DNA from: a virus
Length of the DNA: 56,022 nt
IMG/VR virus record: IMGVR_UViG_3300042731_003577
Location: 1 to 56,022 of that record
Strand: one strand, 5' to 3'
Shown here: one piece after another, positions 1-52,652 of the stretch
Numbering within the stretch: position 1 is the first letter of the stretch
Layout: the number at the start of each line of letters is the position of its first letter
Notes under the pieces: generated by a model
What the model was told of the DNA's origin: nothing
Seen by the model: the letters and a program-made list of their open reading frames with translations, nothing else
Database searches by the model: none
Made by a program: the position numbers and the translations under genes

Positions 1-875
1 ATATCAATACTATTGACGCGCGGAGTAATTCGGACCACCGGGTTGCCGATGGATACTGGCGGGTAGTTGACGGAGTAGGTTTGCACGCCTGACTGATCCG
101 AACGCTTCCAGGTACCACACTGCATCACATAGCAATCCTGCCGATCGATTCTTCCAGCGTCAGTCGCATAATCACGAGCCACCTTGTCTACAATGGCCGA
201 GTGGCCATGCCCAAAGCAAAATAATCTCACACCATGCATTGTGGCATACATCCGGTGCGCGCCACCCAGACCCTTGATTACCTGGCCACCCCATCGGCCA
301 TGGATTAAGAAGATATCGAGGCTGCCCCGGCGCTCATATTTGCTTTTGCCTCGTGATTTTGTGCGGAACCGCAACCGGATGCGGCACTTCCCGGAGTGTA
401 TAGCGCTGCAGCTGTGTGCTGATTCCCCCTCGATTGGGTTGGCCAGCTTGATCCAGTCGGTTTTGTGTTTCAGCGCCGCACAGGTGTCGCCAAGAAGGTT
501 GTAGCTGTGGCGCTTCAGAACAGCGTGCTCGTGATTGCCCGCGAGGCGGCACAGCCATTTGCGGCCCTTCTCAAAGTCAACCAGATGATCGCGTGTGGCA
601 TTCAGGCGCGCATCGTGCCCCGCCATCAGATCCGACGAGCTTGCCGTGAACCGCTTCAAATCGCCTGGCAAAATCAGATCGCTGGCGTCCCCTACGTCGA
701 CATAGGCCACCTTGTGGGGAGAATTGTCCAGCGCCCGGTAGAACTTCTTGAGTGCATCTCTGTCACATGTAGCGCTTTCCAGGTGCTTGTCAGACGTCGG
801 TACAAAATAGATAGGCTCACCGGCACGCTCCAACAAAACGTCATAAATCAGAAAACGATATGGTTGGTCCGTCAT
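1..875 (-). CDS. Calcineurin-like metallophosphoesterase (partial, C-terminus off window)
   Basis: The frame is open from ATG at 875 to the left edge, so the C-terminus is missing. The standard metallophosphoesterase motifs appear in order: D29-x-H31 in a SDKHL context, GDASD with D63, GNHEH at about residues 113-117, a HGRWGG segment near residue 185, and GHGHS near residue 210. These residues normally bind two metal ions and catalyse phosphoester hydrolysis. The natural substrate (nucleic acid end, nucleotide or protein phosphate) cannot be told. The start overlaps the stop of the upstream small membrane gene as ATGA, so translation is probably coupled. It lies at the distal end of the lysis and tail operon. 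Confidence 0.85.
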   Translation of the reverse strand, partial: MTDQPYRFLIYDVLLERAGEPIYFVPTSDKHLESATCDRDALKKFYRALDNSPHKVAYVDVGDASDLILPGDLKRFTASSSDLMAGHDARLNATRDHLVDFEKGRKWLCRLAGNHEHAVLKRHSYNLLGDTCAALKHKTDWIKLANPIEGESAHSCSAIHSGKCRIRLRFRTKSRGKSKYERRGSLDIFLIHGRWGGQVIKGLGGAHRMYATMHGVRLFCFGHGHSAIVDKVARDYATDAGRIDRQDCYVMQCGTWKRSDQSGVQTYSVNYPPVSIGNPVVRITPRVNSID

Positions 876-1231
876 TGCTGCACTTCCAGGACACGGGTGG
901 AGAGCACGATTGCGAGGATGGTCGATGCGAATGTCACGAACCCGACGAGCGCCATTCGCAGGGTCTGAAATCGGCGATACCTGGTGTATTCCTCCTCGAT
1001 CTTGGCGTATGATTGCTTCAGGGCATCGTAGTCAATGGTGAGGGCACCATACTTCAGTTTCCAGAAAACCGCCTTTTGTTTGTCGGGGTTGTCGGTAACC
1101 GATTCGGCAATCTGCCTTTCGAGGGACGGCGCCTTATTCGTAGCCCTCGCTGATATAGTCGTCGACGCGCTTAGCACGACTATCAGGGTCAGGATCGCGA
1201 GCAATCGCGCCCACCTGTGAATACATTTCAT
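872..1231 (-). CDS. Signal-peptide and C-terminal transmembrane protein, spanin-like
   Basis: The protein has 119 residues. An N-terminal signal or membrane segment covers about residues 8-30, followed by a charged helical region (about 35-85) and a second hydrophobic helix at about 90-112. The start at 1231 has a strong AGGAGG-type site; an upstream in-frame start is possible but lacks one. The first third lies inside the 3' part of the preceding membrane gene in another frame, an arrangement seen in Rz/Rz1 spanin pairs. No lipobox cysteine follows the signal, so it is not a typical o-spanin or u-spanin. A lysis role is inferred from position only. Confidence 0.6.
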   Translation of the reverse strand: MKCIHRWARLLAILTLIVVLSASTTISARATNKAPSLERQIAESVTDNPDKQKAVFWKLKYGALTIDYDALKQSYAKIEEEYTRYRRFQTLRMALVGFVTFASTILAIVLSTRVLEVQQ

Positions 1232-32826: not shown

Positions 32827-34374
32827 CTACAGCATGCCTTTGCCGAGACCGAAGCCAGCGGTATGGTGGATCGGACGCTCATCCTCGGCATCAAAAACGT
32901 CACTTGGACAAACAGAGCCGCCTCGGTCATCGCTCGGCAGGCCCTCTGATTCGAGCGTCATGTAGTAGCCCAGCATTGCGGCAATGGCGCTATCCCCATG
33001 GCGGTCACCCTTGCCAGTTTTGTGTTTGGGCAGGCGCGGGATGCCGTCAATTTTCTGGATGGCGCGCAGATCGCTCTTAATGTTGTCGTCCCTAGGGATG
33101 AGCAACCGCCTGGACTCCAGCGCACCACGCAATACCGGCATCATCTCGTTGTAGTGATTGAGCGTCAACTTGACCATCTGGATCGGCTGACTAGCGTCTT
33201 TGATCGACTTACCTGGGTGATTGTACAGCTGGGCTATCCGCTCAGCAAGGGATTCGCCGTTGCCGGTGGCATCAAATGCCGCCGAGACGAAGCGCGGTAG
33301 ACGGCCAATCACGTATTTGGCGATCTGGTATTGCTGGTCATGTGGGACGTTGACCATCTCCACCACCCACGGGGCCACACGCACCATATCCCGACGCATC
33401 GTGAGTGGCATCAACACCGACACATCACTGATGCGCCCAAAATCTTGGCCCAGGAAGTGGCGGCAGTCTTTGGGGAGCGCATTGACATGCGGTGCAAGCT
33501 CTTCTCGAATCCAATCGTCGACAAAGCGCTCACGTGCAGTAGCAGACTGGAGTACAAAATCGTCGTCGCAACGCAACTCCAGCACGTCGCCGTCGATCTG
33601 GCACTGCTCAATCACAGGTCCGGGGATGTAGAGGCCACCAGACCGGGTTGGAATGCAGTCAAGCTCCTCGGCGCTGTCGTAGAGGTACTGATTGTAGATT
33701 TTCTGGACAAAGGCCTGCTCTTTCTTTGGCGTCCATTCCTCGCCGTTTAGTAGGCACATTCGCTTGTAAAGACCCTCATCGATCGCGCGCATGAAGGGGA
33801 TGCGGTGGACACTTCCCTCCTCGCGCTCTTTGGACCGAATCTCGCCGACAATCCGGTTGAATGCCGATCCCTCCCCGTTGTGAGTGCTAATCAGGGTGAC
33901 ATTTCCACCCCAAATCGAGAGGGCATTGGCGCTCTTGAGGGTTGCATCGAGATCGTCATGGAAAGCCGCCTCGTCAACTACGACATCACCCTTACGACCA
34001 CGGAGTGACCGAGGATTGCCGCTTAGAGCCACGATACTGTGCCCTGACGCCATCTTAATCATGAACGCAAGGCAACTGTCGCGCTCTGGCCCACGAAGCA
34101 GCTCTGATGAGATATCGGCCAGCTCCATGGCCAGCCTGAAATCGCGGCACCACTGCGCGCAGGCGGCAATGTATTCCCGCGTGATTTCTTTGTCGTAGCA
34201 GATGTATGAGATGTTGCGGCCCTTACGGCCTTTGCGGGCGCAGCTGAGGACGTTACGGGCGGCTTCGGTCCAGGTTATCCCCGTACGTCTGCCCTTTTCA
34301 GCAACGCGGAAGGTCGATTGGTCTGCGAACCACTCTTGCTGATATGGTAGGAGTATTTTGGGTGCATCCGACAT
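32827..34374 (-). CDS. terL: Terminase large subunit (Mu gp28-like)
   Basis: The 515-residue DNA-packaging motor has an N-terminal ATPase with EKGRRTGITW (Walker A-like, residues about 26-36) and DVVVDEAAF (Walker B), followed by ISTHNGEG (coupling motif). The nuclease domain shows GQDFGRISDVSV, FDATGNGE and GDRHGDSAIA acidic clusters. It matches the Mu gp28 family. The gene follows the tRNA-like RNA at 34397-34587 by 22 nt. Confidence 0.93.
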   Translation of the reverse strand: MSDAPKILLPYQQEWFADQSTFRVAEKGRRTGITWTEAARNVLSCARKGRKGRNISYICYDKEITREYIAACAQWCRDFRLAMELADISSELLRGPERDSCLAFMIKMASGHSIVALSGNPRSLRGRKGDVVVDEAAFHDDLDATLKSANALSIWGGNVTLISTHNGEGSAFNRIVGEIRSKEREEGSVHRIPFMRAIDEGLYKRMCLLNGEEWTPKKEQAFVQKIYNQYLYDSAEELDCIPTRSGGLYIPGPVIEQCQIDGDVLELRCDDDFVLQSATARERFVDDWIREELAPHVNALPKDCRHFLGQDFGRISDVSVLMPLTMRRDMVRVAPWVVEMVNVPHDQQYQIAKYVIGRLPRFVSAAFDATGNGESLAERIAQLYNHPGKSIKDASQPIQMVKLTLNHYNEMMPVLRGALESRRLLIPRDDNIKSDLRAIQKIDGIPRLPKHKTGKGDRHGDSAIAAMLGYYMTLESEGLPSDDRGGSVCPSDVFDAEDERPIHHTAGFGLGKGML

Positions 34375-34396: not shown

Positions 34397-34587
34397 TGGG
34401 GACGCCGGGGTTCGAACCCGGACGGCGTTTGCCTTCGTGCGCAGGGCTGATGCGCTCCATGTTGCGCGGCGCTGCACGAGGTGACCACCCTCTACACTCT
34501 TGGCGAAACACACACCTGGTTAAGGTGCAGCTCTGCCGACCGCGATGACTGGAGGTCAACTAGTCACGGTTTTTGAGCTACGTCCCC
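34397..34587 (-). ncRNA. tRNA-like RNA with structured insertions in D-loop and variable region
   Basis: The ends form a perfect tRNA frame: acceptor GGGGACG (34581-34587) with CGTCCCC (34398-34404), T-arm CCGGG-TTCGAAC-CCCGG (34405-34421), TA at positions 8-9, D-stem GCTC/GAGC, and anticodon arm GCACC-TTAACCA-GGTGT (anticodon would be AAC). Two extra domains make it 191 nt: a D-loop hairpin at 34539-34570 (ACCG/CGGT and TGACT/AGTCA) and a large variable-region domain at 34427-34509 closed by GTTTcGCC/GGCAAAC with two inner hairpins. Without both, about 76 nt of canonical tRNA remains. It may be a real intervening-sequence tRNA, a tRNA-derived regulatory RNA or a degraded tRNA. Confidence 0.55.
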
Positions 34588-34594
34588 ACAATTC

Positions 34595-34984
34595 TCAATC
34601 GTACGAAGAAGCCAAGTGCCATCCAATCTTGCTCTTCGGGTCCTTAATTCCAAGCCACGTTGCAAACCGAACCAGCTGGTTGATATGCTTCTCGGGGATA
34701 TCCGGCATCGTAGTCGGAACCATTTCCGAGCCATAGTCTGAGGCACAAAAACTCAAAACGGATGCACAGTGCGTTGGGTACTCACAATGTCCGAAACTCC
34801 ACAACTCAATATCTGGGCAATGAACCGCGCGAAGCTGGTTATTCAGCCAACAGTGTTCCGAATCGTCGAAGCTCCCATGGTCTCTATCGGCCCACGAATA
34901 ATAGCCATCGACAGGCCCGATTCCCTCCTCACAATCCAGTACGATTAGCCCATAAAACAGGTGGGCGCTTGATGACATGCCCAT
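34595..34984 (-). CDS. Hypothetical protein between tRNA genes
   Basis: The 129-residue protein is rich in aromatic, His and Cys residues (CWLNNQLRAVHCPD, LWSFGHCEYPTHC). ATG 34984 follows GGAGGCG; the much longer open frame upstream runs through tRNA sequence and is not real. It lies between the Thr tRNA and the tRNA-like RNA. Function unknown. Confidence 0.7.
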   Translation of the reverse strand: MGMSSSAHLFYGLIVLDCEEGIGPVDGYYSWADRDHGSFDDSEHCWLNNQLRAVHCPDIELWSFGHCEYPTHCASVLSFCASDYGSEMVPTTMPDIPEKHINQLVRFATWLGIKDPKSKIGWHLASSYD

Positions 34985-35008
34985 TATTCGCCTCCAAAGT
35001 TTGTTCTG

Positions 35009-35079
35009 GGCAGGCGACCGGACTCGAACCGGTGTCTTATCGATACAATCAATGGCTTTCCCAATTAAGCTACACCTGC
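35009..35079 (-). tRNA. tRNA, probably Thr (UGU)
   Basis: Acceptor GCAGGTG/CGCCTGC pairs fully, TA follows, D-stem GCTT/AAGC with a GGG-containing loop, T-arm ACCGG-TTCGAGT-CCGGT. The anticodon stem is weak (four pairs and one mismatch) around loop ATTGTAT, giving TGT. An extra G at 35080 could pair with the discriminator C, as in tRNA-His, but the anticodon does not fit His. CCA is not encoded. Confidence 0.75.
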
Positions 35080-35080
35080 C

Positions 35081-35436
35081 AAGCGTGCAAAGTTGACGGC
35101 GGCGATTCCCTGATCGCCACACGCTACGACACCTCCAGCTGCCGACCAACCGCGATTCCGGTATCTGGCAGCGGGGGTTGACATCCAAGGGGTGGCCAAG
35201 CCCGATGGACCCGACAAGTGCCGCAGTGTGTGCATGGGTGTCAATCCATGGCCTTGGTTTTCCCAAGGCAACACCGTCATGTGGGGTTTCATCCCCAATC
35301 AAAGGGCTTTGTGTGCGTGAGGGCTTCCGCCAACTCGTCCACGCACAATCAGCCCAGCATATCCTGGAGAGGTGCATGGTGTTGTAACACCTGGGCCTGG
35401 GGGCGACGTCAACACACCAGACTCTACACCTCATGA
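35081..35436 (-). other. Hairpin-rich non-coding stretch between two tRNAs
   Basis: No convincing gene is seen in these 356 bases. On the minus strand there are many perfect stems: GCCTTGG-GAAAA-CCAAGGC (7 bp, about 35251-35269), GGCGAT/ATCGCC, GCTGCC/GGCAGC, GGTGTT/AACACC and GGGG/CCCC pairs. It is probably transcribed with the tRNAs. It may hold small structured RNAs or processing sites. Confidence 0.5.
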
Positions 35437-35507
35437 TTGCGGGTGGGGGAGTTGAACCCCCAACTCTGGCTTATGAGGCCAGCGCCTTCCCGTTTGGCTA
35501 ACCCGCG
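35437..35507 (-). tRNA. tRNA-Met (CAU), initiator-like
   Basis: Acceptor CGCGGGT/ACCCGCA forms six pairs and leaves C1 opposite A72, the hallmark of bacterial initiator tRNA. TA at 8-9, D-arm GCC/GGC with GG in the loop, anticodon arm CTGGC-CTCATAA-GCCAG (anticodon CAT), T-arm GGGGG-TTCAACT-CCCCC, A73. The last three anticodon-stem pairs are all G-C, though not the exact GGG/CCC. It lacks the A11-U24 pair of initiators. CCA is not encoded. Confidence 0.9.
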
Positions 35508-35640
35508 TCAAGATGGGCCATTTATAGCGACTGGCCCAAATCGCGCTCCGGTGTCTCTTTATACCCAGCACGGCTGGGGACTCTTTGGTCGGACTCGATG
35601 GACACCGCTTTCGCGGCCCGGCTCATATCCACCCAACACC
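35508..35640 (-). other. Structured leader between tRNA promoter and first tRNA
   Basis: This 133-nt segment contains CCGC-GAAA-GCGG, CCCAGC-CGT-GCTGGG and GGGCCA/TGGCCC hairpins, and a 7-bp CGGTGTC/GACACCG closing pair around the second. No ORF or tRNA T-loop is visible. It could be a processed leader or an independent small RNA. Confidence 0.5.
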
Positions 35641-35646
35641 ATTATA
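35641..35646 (-). promoter_or_regulatory. Extended -10 promoter candidate for the RNA cluster
   Basis: TATAAT preceded by TGG on the minus strand, just before the structured leader and tRNA-Met. No good -35 box. It is the nearest promoter-like sequence upstream of the cluster. Confidence 0.5.
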
Positions 35647-35706
35647 CCACAAATCGAACAGCAGACTACTCACATTCGCCATTTGCTGCAGCAAGCGCGA
35701 CCATCC

Positions 35707-35925: not shown

Positions 35926-35978
35926 GGGCGTCTTGCCCTTACATTGGAGATTATGCCATGGGTCGTATTGGGTGTCAA
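35926..35978 (-). promoter_or_regulatory. Sigma70-like promoter with 5' stem-loop
   Basis: TTGACA (35973-35978), 17-bp spacer, TGG-CATAAT (35950-35955), then CTCCAATGTAAG and the hairpin GGGC-AAGAC-GCCC at 35926-35938. The ribosome site of the next gene follows at once. It is the best-conserved member of the promoter family. Confidence 0.8.
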
Positions 35979-45178: not shown

Positions 45179-45533
45179 CACATATCTCCTGATATTTCTT
45201 GCGACATTCGTCCATGGCATTGGTATAACACGGCGTGTGGTAGACCGCGACATCGCCAGTATCTCCACTTACTCGACATTTGACCAGTGCTTTGTGCCCA
45301 CACTCCATCTCAATCATGTTGTGCTTGCCAGTGTACCATGTCTTTACCTTGTCGCCATCGGGGATGCCAAGAAACAGTACCAGTGACACAGCCAGTAGCA
45401 CGAGGCCAATACCAAGCCATTTCTCGCCCTCCCTCTCGACACAATAGACAAGTATGGCGATACACCCGCCCAGAAAGGTCAGCATAGTCAGCATCCATCC
45501 CAACGCCAACAACCTCTCAATTATCGTCAACAT
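45168..45533 (-). CDS. Two-helix membrane protein with soluble domain
   Basis: The 121-residue protein has two transmembrane helices in the first 55 residues (about 8-30 and 40-55) and a Cys-containing C-terminal domain (MECGHKALVKCRV, CYTNAMDEC) that may form disulfides in the periplasm. GGAGG precedes ATG 45533. It follows terS. Function unknown. Confidence 0.67.
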   Translation of the reverse strand: MLTIIERLLALGWMLTMLTFLGGCIAILVYCVEREGEKWLGIGLVLLAVSLVLFLGIPDGDKVKTWYTGKHNMIEMECGHKALVKCRVSGDTGDVAVYHTPCYTNAMDECRKKYQEICDGY

Positions 45534-46119
45534 CACCATCCTCCTTTTTCTGGTTCACACCCAATATCTGTTCGACAATAAAGGTGTGGTCCTGGTCGGA
45601 TATACCGCGCTCGGTCTTGATCGGCCCACCATCCTTGCCGGTCACCTCGTTGACCTTTTTCTCCACGGCAATACCAAGGTGGCGACACAGCAGCGTTAGT
45701 GCTCGGATCTTGTCGTGAGTCTTGATGGTGGTAGTAACGCCCTGGCGGCTACGTGTCTCGCTGACCTCCTTGATTGCGGCAGTGACATCTTCGTCGAGTT
45801 GGTCGCTATCGACCAGCGTAATCTGGTTACCAGACCACGTCACGGCGTCAGTGATGTTCGACAGCCCGATCCTCTCCAGCTCCTTTATCACGCGATCGGC
45901 ATCAACACCGGTGCGCTCGGCCCGCTCGTCTTTTAATTGTTGTATGGCAGCTTGCACTTTAGGATTCTTCAAGAGGCCACACCCCTGTGCGTGGGCCGAT
46001 TTCGGGCTATAACCGGCCTGAATTGCCGCCTTGGTGGCGTTCAATTCGATCATGTATGCCTCTACAAAGGCCTGCTGCTTCTCCGTGTTGAGGCCGTATT
46101 TGAGCTTCTTACGTGGCAT
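45517..46119 (-). CDS. terS: Terminase small subunit (XtmA/terminase_2 type)
   Basis: The 200-residue protein matches terminase_2 small subunits: LNTEKQQAFVEAYMIELNATK, AGYSPKSAHAQGCGLLKNP (helix-turn-helix), VQAAIQQLKDERAERTG, and VIKELERIGLSNITDAV. It recognises the packaging site and loads the large subunit. It lies about 11 kb from terL, unusual since the two are normally adjacent. AAGGGG precedes the ATG. Confidence 0.92.
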   Translation of the reverse strand: MPRKKLKYGLNTEKQQAFVEAYMIELNATKAAIQAGYSPKSAHAQGCGLLKNPKVQAAIQQLKDERAERTGVDADRVIKELERIGLSNITDAVTWSGNQITLVDSDQLDEDVTAAIKEVSETRSRQGVTTTIKTHDKIRALTLLCRHLGIAVEKKVNEVTGKDGGPIKTERGISDQDHTFIVEQILGVNQKKEDGDVDDN

Positions 46120-49395: not shown

Positions 49396-49476
49396 TTTCG
49401 GCCTCCTCGCGCACGTTGGCGCCTCGTTTGGTTGCTGATGGGTTGCCTCATCAGGCACTGGGGACCACCCAGCACG

Positions 49477-49492
49477 ACGCCCTTTCGGGCGT
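49477..49492 (-). other. GAAA-loop hairpin between genes
   Basis: ACGCCC-GAAA-GGGCGT on the minus strand, just after the stop of the 49499 gene. No U-run follows. It resembles the 5' hairpins of the promoter cassettes, but no promoter lies before it; it may mark a processing site. Confidence 0.5.
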
Positions 49493-49498
49493 TTCGGC

Positions 49499-49705
49499 TT
49501 ACTTGCTTTCGTCGGCCTTCATGCGGCGATGGACCAGTCGCGCGATTGCAACACCGCGCTTTTTGTACGCTGCCCCTTTCTTGTTGCGGAACTTACTGGC
49601 TTGGCGCGTGGTCGGCTTGATACGGGCAAGCTCACAGGCCTCCTGGAAGAGTTCCACGATTTCGGCACAGTGGGCATTGTTGAGGTGTTGCAGTTTGGTC
49701 TTCAT
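49499..49705 (-). CDS. Hypothetical basic helical protein
   Basis: A 68-residue basic protein (RQASKFRNKKGAAYKKRG), probably nucleic-acid binding. AGGAG precedes ATG 49705, after the hairpin and promoter at 49724-49776. Function unknown. Confidence 0.66.
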   Translation of the reverse strand: MKTKLQHLNNAHCAEIVELFQEACELARIKPTTRQASKFRNKKGAAYKKRGVAIARLVHRRMKADESK

Positions 49706-50917: not shown

Positions 50918-51331
50918 TTATCTCCAATCGTCCGGGTTGTAGTCTAACCGTTGGGACGCACATACCTCATCCCAGCTAACGCGCGACCCCTGATAATAAT
51001 CACGGGTCGCAACATCCTCCAGTTGCATCTGTATCGTATCATAGGCCCATTTGGGCGGGTGATCATATTCGGGCCAATCATCGGCTTTCTCGTGGTCTAA
51101 CATGGGATGTTCAAGCGACGCTTCCACCGCGCGGCGGTATAAGGCCAGCTCCTTCGCAGCCTCAATTAGCAATCTTTCTACCGGTGACCCTCCAGACAAG
51201 TCAAGTCTTTTACCTCGACCCCAGTATGGCGCACCGAGGAGATCCACCGACCTTTCTTCAATGAAATAACCATCCTTGGTATAAACAATTCGCATGTCTC
51301 CGAACCGATACAAAAATTTACCCTCGCTCAT
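50918..51331 (-). CDS. Hypothetical protein sharing a GAPYW module with 25385-25777
   Basis: The 137-residue protein has the segment F-I-E-E-R-S-V-D-L-L-G-A-P-Y-W near residues 23-37, related to the protein at 25.4 kb. The middle is helical, the end acidic (LDYNPDDWR). GGAGGCG precedes ATG 51331, which overlaps the end of dnaB. Function unknown. Confidence 0.68.
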   Translation of the reverse strand: MSEGKFLYRFGDMRIVYTKDGYFIEERSVDLLGAPYWGRGKRLDLSGGSPVERLLIEAAKELALYRRAVEASLEHPMLDHEKADDWPEYDHPPKWAYDTIQMQLEDVATRDYYQGSRVSWDEVCASQRLDYNPDDWR

Positions 51332-52652
51332 ATCCGCCTCCATATTTGCTGTCCAAATCAGTGAATAGAAAATACTGCAACTGCGCTGATAGCTGTACAA
51401 CGCCAGTCTCTCCATGCCGGTTTTTTCCGATGATTGCCTCTACCTTTCCCTTGACGCTTGGGTCGTGTGGATTATGCATCTCTTCTCGATACAAAAGTAC
51501 AATAAAGTCCGCGTCCTGCTCAATTGCGCCCGATCCACGAAGATCACTAATCATCGGACGTTTGTCCGCGCGATTTTCAGACATTCGGTTAAGTTGAGCG
51601 AGGGCCACCACCGGTATTTCCAAATCTTTAGCAAGCAATTTCAGTTGCCTTGATATTTCTGAAATCTCCTCCTCCTGGCTGTTGACACGTGTCCCCAATT
51701 TCATCAGCTGTAGGTAATCAACGATCACCATATCTAGGCCATGCCGGTTTGACTGCTGTTTGCACAGTAGCCTAATCTCCGACGGGTTGATGTCGGCTTT
51801 ATCGCAAACCCAAAGTTTGGCTTTGGCGATTCGTTCCGCGCCCTTTGTGATGTCTTTCCATTGCACGATATTGATATTCGCGGTGACAAGGTCGCGATGC
51901 GGGACGCGCGATTGCCCTGACAACAATCGGTAGATCAGTTCCGTCCGGAACATTTCCAGCGAGAATATCGCCACATTTTTGGGCTCTACGTCGCCAACAC
52001 CGAGCGCAGCATTCAAACCAGCACAGCAGGCGAGGGCGGTCTTGCCTGTCCCTGGTCGGCCAGCAATAACGGTCAAATGGCCAGCGTGGAATCCGCCAGT
52101 CATGGCGTCGAGGTCGGTGAATCCAGTCAGCACGCCCGCCTCTCTGCCATGCTTGAATGTATGACTTAACTCACCAAAAACGTCACGCATCGCAATGTTT
52201 GAATCTACCAATTGACCAGCCTGTTGGTCGTACAGCCTAATCAGGTGAGCTTCAGCGTTTGCCGCTATTTCATTTGGGTCTGCGGTGTTCGACGATGCCT
52301 TGGCAGCCATTTCTTTGCCGATCCGGACTAGCTCTCTGTTTCGGGACGCCACCTTCACCAGCTTGGCGTACGTCGGGTATGCCTCAGCCGCCCCTGTGTA
52401 GTCCGCCATTGTGGCGATATACGGCGTTCCGCCAACGGTGTTGAGCGTGCCATCCATGCGCAGCCTGGAGCACACGGTAATTTCGTCGATATCGTCACCG
52501 GCGTCCGACAGGGCCAGTATTGCCGCCCATATGACGCCGTTGCGTTCGGTAAAGTCACCAGGCTGTAAGCTCAGCTCAAGCAAGACCTTGGAATCCATTA
52601 GAACAGCGCCTATTAGGGCGCATTCCGCATGTAGAACTTGGTTGTTATCCAT
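51318..52652 (-). CDS. dnaB: Replicative DNA helicase (DnaB-like)
   Basis: The 444-residue protein is a DnaB-type hexameric helicase. Residues 1-150 form the N-terminal domain (HAECALIGAVLMDSKVL). The RecA-like domain has the Walker A GRPGTGKT near residue 198, IFSLEM, Walker B DMVIVDYLQLM, the VVALAQLNR loop and DLRGSGAIEQDADFI, then KNRHGETG. It unwinds the replication fork 5' to 3'. It is followed in order by loader, initiator and methyltransferase genes. Confidence 0.95.
   Translation of the reverse strand: MDNNQVLHAECALIGAVLMDSKVLLELSLQPGDFTERNGVIWAAILALSDAGDDIDEITVCSRLRMDGTLNTVGGTPYIATMADYTGAAEAYPTYAKLVKVASRNRELVRIGKEMAAKASSNTADPNEIAANAEAHLIRLYDQQAGQLVDSNIAMRDVFGELSHTFKHGREAGVLTGFTDLDAMTGGFHAGHLTVIAGRPGTGKTALACCAGLNAALGVGDVEPKNVAIFSLEMFRTELIYRLLSGQSRVPHRDLVTANINIVQWKDITKGAERIAKAKLWVCDKADINPSEIRLLCKQQSNRHGLDMVIVDYLQLMKLGTRVNSQEEEISEISRQLKLLAKDLEIPVVALAQLNRMSENRADKRPMISDLRGSGAIEQDADFIVLLYREEMHNPHDPSVKGKVEAIIGKNRHGETGVVQLSAQLQYFLFTDLDSKYGGGYERG

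What the first reader, a model, noticed from the sequence alone, without database searches (positions are those of the whole stretch)
34397..34587. tRNA-like RNA carrying two structured insertions
The acceptor stem (7/7), T-arm, D-stem, TA at positions 8-9 and an anticodon arm are all present, but a hairpin sits in the D-loop and an 83-nt multi-hairpin domain in the variable region, each closed by its own helix. Taking both out leaves about 76 nt of canonical tRNA. This could be a new class of intervening sequences in a phage tRNA, a tRNA scaffold carrying a regulatory RNA, or a degraded gene that still folds. The predicted AAC anticodon is unusual for bacteria, which argues against ordinary decoding.
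Basis: partly seen in the sequence, partly recalled or inferred. Interest (0 to 1): 0.8.

Follow-up and report, generated by a model that had tools for sequence, protein, structure and literature searches.

The report
Phage tRNA with two extra arms
A phage from a metagenome carries a valine-type tRNA gene whose core is intact but which has an extra hairpin in its D-loop and about 85 extra bases in its variable region, an oversized tRNA that the standard tRNA finder (ARAGORN) and Rfam miss; similar extra D-loop hairpins turn up in other phage and some bacterial tRNAs, where they are clearly under selection.

Summary
The feature is real and lies on the minus strand (34587 to 34397), filling the 220-nt gap between a small ORF and the terminase large-subunit gene, downstream of two ordinary tRNAs. 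The tRNA core is intact: acceptor 7/7, D-stem 4/4, anticodon stem 5/5, T-stem 5/5. ARAGORN and Rfam miss it as it stands; with both inserts removed ARAGORN calls tRNA-Val(AAC). A strict scan gives no such hit in 120 simulated window-strands. The D-loop insert (32 nt) closes on a 7-bp helix and the variable region is 90 nt long, but the interior of the inserts is no more stable than shuffled sequence, so the 'multi-hairpin domain' is not shown. No homologue of this gene was found, so covariation cannot be tested here. The architecture does recur: many phage tRNAs carry D-loop hairpins and a few carry variable-region hairpins. In Solirubrobacterales and phages a tRNA-Glu D-loop hairpin covaries in 6 of 7 pairs, and in several genomes it is the only UUC-anticodon tRNA found. 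I read the window gene as a valine-type phage tRNA with retained extra arms; A34 and C37 make ordinary decoding doubtful. A decaying tRNA gene is the main rival.

The parts
34397..34587 (-). Whole tRNA-Val(AAC)-like gene with two inserts, 191 nt including discriminator A73 (34397); no encoded CCA
34581..34587 (-). Acceptor stem 5' strand GGGGACG
   Evidence: sequence; 7/7 pairs with 34398-34404, pair probability 0.74-1.0
34398..34404 (-). Acceptor stem 3' strand CGTCCCC
34575..34578 (-). D-stem 5' strand GCTC (preceded by TA at 34579-34580, positions 8-9)
34534..34574 (-). Expanded D-loop, 41 nt (normally 7-11)
34539..34570 (-). D-loop insert, 32 nt: ACCGUGA/UCGCGGU 7-bp helix with an inner hairpin; lies before the conserved GG
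   Evidence: pair probability 0.92-1.0; insert alone p about 0.05 against shuffles
34530..34533 (-). D-stem 3' strand GAGC
34512..34528 (-). Anticodon arm GCACC-TTAACCA-GGTGT; anticodon AAC at 34519-34521; C at position 37
34422..34511 (-). Expanded variable region, 90 nt (normally 4-5, or up to about 24 in class II tRNAs)
34427..34509 (-). V-region insert closed by GUUU.GCC (34502-34509) with GGC-AAAC (34427-34433); interior fold uncertain
   Evidence: pair probability 0.74-0.77; 9 closing pairs reached by 0.7% of shuffles; insert alone p about 0.19
34405..34421 (-). T-arm CCGGG-TTCGAAC-CCCGG
32827..34374 (-). Terminase large subunit, starts 22 nt after the RNA's 3' end
   Evidence: phrog_2 8.6e-32; 45% identity to phage PhiKM, 40% to Mu
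34595..34984 (-). Small ORF (129 aa) upstream; its stop lies 7 nt before the RNA; start ATG preceded by GGAGG
   Evidence: the longer mechanical ORF 34595-35434 runs through tRNA-Thr and has no family match
35008..35079 (-). tRNA-Thr(TGT), ordinary
35437..35507 (-). tRNA-Met(CAT), ordinary
35950..35978 (-). Sigma-70-like promoter TTGACA-17-CATAAT with extended TG, 11 of 12, upstream of the tRNA region
   Evidence: two promoter-like sites found, two expected by chance, but this one is 11/12

Best explanation
It is a valine-type phage tRNA gene with two retained extra arms. One hairpin has been inserted in the D-loop, before the GG that contacts the T-loop, and one long segment in the variable region, closed by its own helix. 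Both are places where tRNA length normally varies, so the L-shaped core can still form around them. The gene is probably transcribed in the minus-strand operon that runs from a promoter near 35950 through tRNA-Met, tRNA-Thr and the small ORF into the terminase gene. It would be cut out by the host's tRNA-processing enzymes and given CCA, with the inserts staying in the RNA as extra arms. Shown: the anatomy, the intact core, the strand and position, the valine identity bases, and that D-loop hairpins are present and conserved by compensatory changes in other bacterial and phage tRNAs. Inferred: expression, retention of these two inserts, and function. My best guess at function is an accessory tRNA tuned to survive host tRNA-targeting defences, with altered anticodon-loop bases and arms that hinder nucleases or modifying enzymes, rather than a routine decoding tRNA.
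For: Intact core with no chance hits in simulations; ARAGORN calls tRNA-Val(AAC) once the inserts are removed. The valine identity elements listed for bacteria in PMC9976931 (A73, G3-C70, A35, C36) are present; U4-A69 is not, the pair being G4-C69. The RNA fits exactly between two genes and lies with two normal tRNAs on one strand, downstream of an 11/12 promoter match. Precedents: D-loop hairpins in many phage tRNAs, e.g. L101 tRNA-Val(GAC), where the hairpin also precedes the GG and position 37 is also C. Variable-region hairpins occur in L502 tRNA-Thr(CGT), 41 nt, z -2.8, and in L098/L182/L206, 74 nt, z -2.5, anticodon AUA with A34. The D-loop hairpin of a tRNA-Glu group covaries in 6 of 7 pairs, 98.8% paired; no shuffle of 500 reaches the whole-structure scores. 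It is the only UUC-anticodon tRNA found in G001, G002, G042, G044 and G059, while four other genomes of the same order carry the normal form. Engineered tRNAs with hairpins on the V-arm can remain active (PMC7590224). Phage tRNAs are argued to evade host tRNA nucleases through anticodon-loop changes (PMC10264068).
Against: No homologue of this gene, so no covariation or conservation for it. The insert interiors are no better folded than shuffles. A34 in a valine tRNA and C at position 37 are very unusual, which fits decay as well as specialisation. The precedents are analogies: they have one insert each, and none is homologous to this gene. PMC7590224 also notes that V-loop aptamer tRNAs showed only marginal activity. 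Nothing shows expression.
Confidence: 0.52

Rival explanations
1. A decaying tRNA gene (pseudogene): a phage tRNA-Val hit by two recent insertions that has not yet lost its stems.
For: A34 and C37 in the anticodon loop; insert interiors not better folded than shuffles; no relatives keep it; phage tRNAs turn over fast (general knowledge).
Against: Every stem is perfectly paired and nearly all invariant positions are intact; two independent insertions at just the two tolerated sites, each closed by a helix, is more than random damage would be expected to give; similar expansions in other tRNAs are under selection.
Confidence: 0.25
2. A tRNA-shaped non-decoding RNA: a processing or punctuation element that lets RNase P and 3' processing enzymes separate the terminase mRNA from upstream RNA, or a scaffold that presents the V-region domain as a regulatory RNA.
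For: Placed 7 nt after one stop codon and 22 nt before the terminase start; tRNA-Thr sits in the same way before the small ORF; odd anticodon loop; the V-insert is larger than the tRNA itself.
Against: No data on processing; the valine identity bases and the anticodon loop need not be kept for punctuation; no conserved element in the V-insert could be found.
Confidence: 0.12
3. The two inserts are intervening sequences that are removed to give a normal tRNA-Val.
For: Removal gives a tRNA that ARAGORN accepts; archaeal tRNAs with introns in the D-loop appear in the same searches.
Against: Inserts of 32 and about 83 nt are far too short for group I introns and no Rfam intron matches; the folds show no bulge-helix-bulge; relatives of its structural genes are from phages of Pseudomonadota, hosts with no known enzyme for such splicing; excision would still leave A34 and C37.
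Confidence: 0.07
4. Chance folding, or a fusion of two tRNAs by deletion.
For: The V-insert fold is not significant; tandem-duplication artefacts do occur elsewhere (e.g. L371, L396).
Against: 0 hits in 120 simulated window-strands; no second copy of either insert in the window; one acceptor stem pairs 7/7 across the whole RNA.
Confidence: 0.03

Closest known systems
Bacterial and phage tRNA-Val
   Same: 7/5 acceptor and T-stem, D-stem, A35, C36, A73, G3-C70, all tertiary-contact bases checked
   Different: 41-nt D-loop, 90-nt variable region, anticodon AAC instead of GAC or UAC, C at position 37
Phage and Solirubrobacterales tRNAs with D-loop hairpins (e.g. tRNA-Glu of 95 nt; L101 tRNA-Val)
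   Same: A hairpin inserted in the D-loop of an otherwise normal tRNA; L101 also has it before the GG
   Different: Most have it after the GG and have a normal variable region; different sequence, not homologous
Phage tRNAs with long variable-region hairpins (L502 tRNA-Thr, L098/L182/L206 with anticodon AUA)
   Same: A tRNA with 41-74 nt in the variable region; L098 also has A34
   Different: No D-loop insert; their V-inserts fold better than shuffles; not homologous
Class II tRNAs (Leu, Ser, Tyr)
   Same: A structured variable arm
   Different: Arms there are about 10-24 nt; here 90 nt, in a tRNA with valine identity
Archaeal and red-algal tRNAs with introns in the D-arm or variable region
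   Same: Insert positions
   Different: No bulge-helix-bulge motif in the fold; phage of a bacterium

Membership tests
Bacterial-type tRNA (canonical) | 7-bp acceptor, 5-bp T-stem with TTCRA loop, D-stem, 5-bp anticodon stem with T33 | tested here: met
Bacterial-type tRNA (canonical) | D-loop and variable region of normal length, recognised by tRNA finders | tested here: not met
   D-loop 41 nt, V 90 nt; not called by ARAGORN or Rfam RF00005
tRNA-Val | A73, G3-C70, U4-A69, A35, C36 (PMC9976931) | tested here: inconclusive
   four of five met, U4-A69 is G4-C69; charging not testable here
tRNA able to decode | purine at position 37, anticodon used in bacteria | tested here: not met
   C37, AAC
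tRNA with D-loop hairpin (group described here) | hairpin inside the D-loop of an intact tRNA | tested here: met
   7-bp helix, pair probability at least 0.92; fold p about 0.05
tRNA with D-loop hairpin (group described here) | helix kept by compensatory changes among homologues | not testable with these tools
   met for the tRNA-Glu group; no homologue of the window gene found
Archaeal bulge-helix-bulge tRNA intron | two 3-nt bulges on opposite strands around a 4-bp helix at the splice sites | tested here: not met
   read from the predicted folds
Group I intron in tRNA | insert of 200 nt or more with the conserved core, in the anticodon loop | tested here: not met
   inserts of 32 and about 83 nt outside the anticodon loop; no Rfam match at E up to 1
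tmRNA | no D-stem, tag-peptide ORF | tested here: not met
   D-stem present; ARAGORN finds no tmRNA

The most novel reading that the evidence does not exclude
Phages and some bacteria use a so far overlooked class of tRNAs with retained, selected extra arms in the D-loop and the variable region, of which this two-armed tRNA-Val is an extreme member; in phages the arms serve to escape host tRNA-targeting defences or to give the tRNA a second, non-decoding role.
Probability: 0.3. Interest if true: 0.75.

Novelty: new variant of a known kind. Interest (0 to 1): 0.52.

Why it matters
Standard tools miss such tRNAs, so phage and bacterial tRNA sets are incomplete; some genomes would wrongly seem to lack a tRNA for glutamate. 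If the extra arms are retained, they show that the ribosome, aminoacyl-tRNA synthetases and EF-Tu tolerate large additions at the elbow and variable side of tRNA in nature. That bears on engineered tRNAs and on how phages protect tRNAs from host nucleases.

Tried and rejected
Close relatives of this phage: terminase and portal as single queries in viral contigs (none); terminase alignment (80 loci, 38-45% identical, none with a tRNA upstream); 399 genomes of a bacterial phylum (35-45% identical). The anticodon-arm 16-mer gave only L002, a chance match in an unrelated contig. A pattern for both inserts plus an NACC anticodon loop gave only L101 (D-insert only, in a tRNA array) and L524 (chance, spanning two tRNAs). 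The insert-free core has no blastn match in GenBank phages. A copy of either insert elsewhere in the window: none. ARAGORN's own intron mode on the full sequence: no call; a tRNA-Gly call on the version with the D-insert removed looks spurious, because a better anticodon arm exists. The first census of tRNA-Glu in Solirubrobacterales used a wrong base in the pattern and was replaced. The first D-loop fold script had an off-by-one in its pattern and was replaced.

Full report
Observation. The feature reads on the minus strand, 34587 to 34397: GGGGACG TA GCTC [41-nt D-loop] GAGC T GCACC TTAACCA GGTGT [90-nt variable region] CCGGG TTCGAAC CCCGG CGTCCCC A. ARAGORN and Rfam find only the two ordinary tRNAs nearby, Thr at 35008-35079 and Met at 35437-35507, on the same strand. 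With the inserts removed, six out of six splice variants are called tRNA-Val(AAC). A strict scan (acceptor 7/7, T-stem 5/5, T8, A14, A21, GG, D-stem at least 3/4, anticodon stem 5/5, T33) hits this place alone in the window, nothing in 120 simulated window-strands, and nothing in 0.71 Mb of fetched phage loci. Base-pair probabilities support all four stems. The tRNA core is therefore not chance.

Inserts. The D-loop insert (34539-34570) lies before the conserved GG and closes on ACCGUGA/UCGCGGU. The V-region insert closes on GUUU.GCC/GGC-AAAC. The whole RNA folds better than shuffles (z -3.0), but shuffling only the inserts leaves the energy unchanged (z -0.24). Alone, the D-insert reaches p about 0.05 and the V-insert p about 0.19; the V closing helix is reached by 0.7% of shuffles, a test chosen after the fact. 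The closing helices are plausible; the inner multi-hairpin domain is not demonstrated.

Context. The window is a 56,022-base virus record with a Mu-like portal, terminase and head protease and a contractile tail; the relatives named there are mostly phages of Pseudomonadota, so a bacterial host is likely. The RNA fills the 220-nt gap between a 129-aa ORF (stop at 34595) and the terminase large subunit (start at 34374). An 11/12 sigma-70-like promoter with extended -10 lies upstream at 35978-35950 on the same strand. GTT is 28% of valine codons in the main genes, so there is no strong codon need for an AAC tRNA.

Identity. PMC9976931 lists A73, G3-C70, U4-A69, A35 and C36 for bacterial valine; the window RNA has all but U4-A69. 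A34 in a valine tRNA and C37 are both very unusual in bacteria (general knowledge), so normal decoding is doubtful.

Relatives of this gene. None: GenBank phages, viral contigs by terminase, portal, anticodon arm and double-insert patterns, and 399 genomes of one phylum. Covariation in this gene is therefore untested.

The architecture elsewhere. In L101 a tRNA-Val(GAC) has a D-loop hairpin before the GG, and C37. Variable-region expansions are rarer: L502 tRNA-Thr(CGT) with two hairpins (41 nt), and L098/L182/L206 with 74 nt and anticodon AUA. In prokaryote genomes the same D-loop pattern finds archaeal tRNAs (known introns), Bacteroidales tRNA-Gly and Solirubrobacterales tRNA-Glu.

Retention in working tRNAs. 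Twelve distinct 95-nt tRNA-Glu sequences from Solirubrobacterales and phages align without gaps. Their D-loop helix has changes on both sides in 6 of 7 pairs and 98.8% paired cells; for the whole structure no shuffle of 500 reaches the observed scores and slid structures fall to 34-49% paired. In G001, G002, G042, G044 and G059 this is the only UUC-anticodon tRNA found, while G008, G023, G031 and G043 of the same order have the ordinary form. These are draft genomes and the pattern is exact, so absence is not proof. It nevertheless makes retained D-loop hairpins in working bacterial tRNAs likely. A 2020 review of non-canonical tRNAs (PMC7609411) does not mention phages, and the passages shown describe no D-loop hairpins of this kind; several literature searches found no report, within the limits of the library.

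Mechanism. Best reading: a valine-type phage tRNA with two retained extra arms, processed from the operon transcript, probably an accessory tRNA rather than a routine decoder. Evasion of host tRNA nucleases is a reasonable role (PMC10264068 argues this for anticodon-loop changes) but is inference. V-arm additions can be tolerated in engineered tRNAs, though earlier V-loop fusions were nearly inactive (PMC7590224). Main rivals: a decaying gene, or a non-decoding processing or scaffold element. Splicing and chance are unlikely.

Verdict. Observation confirmed; interpretation partly supported; a new variant of a known kind. The wider pattern, D-loop and variable-region hairpins in phage and bacterial tRNAs that standard tools miss, is the more important result.

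Noticed in passing
L552, L553, L556, L566, L568, L569, L570, L576 (genomes G001, G002, G003, G042, G044, G048, G050, G059); L172, L244, L249, L275: tRNA-Glu(UUC) of Solirubrobacterales and of phages carries a 7-bp covarying hairpin in the D-loop; in several genomes it is the only UUC-anticodon tRNA found.
   Followed up: yes
window 49437-49499, minus strand: Hammerhead ribozyme type II (Rfam RF02276, 48.2 bits, above gathering score), at the start of an ORF, far from the tRNAs.
   Followed up: no
window 35080-35436 and 35510-35650, minus strand: Two non-coding stretches flanking tRNA-Met with many hairpins (fold z down to about -2.7 on the minus and -3.5 on the plus strand) and no Rfam family; possibly structured RNAs in the same transcript.
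   Followed up: partly
L502:8066-8174 (-): tRNA-Thr(CGT) whose variable region carries two clean hairpins (41 nt, z -2.8); the only tRNA of that locus and not called by ARAGORN.
   Followed up: partly
L098:105-244 (-), L182:682-821 (-), L206:8880-9019 (+): Identical tRNA with anticodon AUA and a 74-nt variable region, one base from tRNA-Val in a phage tRNA array.
   Followed up: partly
L094:678-803 and 816-942 (+): Two neighbouring tRNA-like genes share a 60-70-nt insert in the anticodon-arm region (AAACCCGT ... ATGGTTACC); looks like a small intron-like element.
   Followed up: no
L322 and L324 (cellular contigs, Bacteroidales): tRNA-Gly(CCC) genes with a 40-nt D-loop insert that folds strongly (z below -4).
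   Followed up: no
window 45517-46119 (-): Terminase small subunit (Terminase_2) lies 11 kb from the large subunit; with DnaB helicase at 51318-52652 and a Mu-like head this is a mosaic phage.
   Followed up: no
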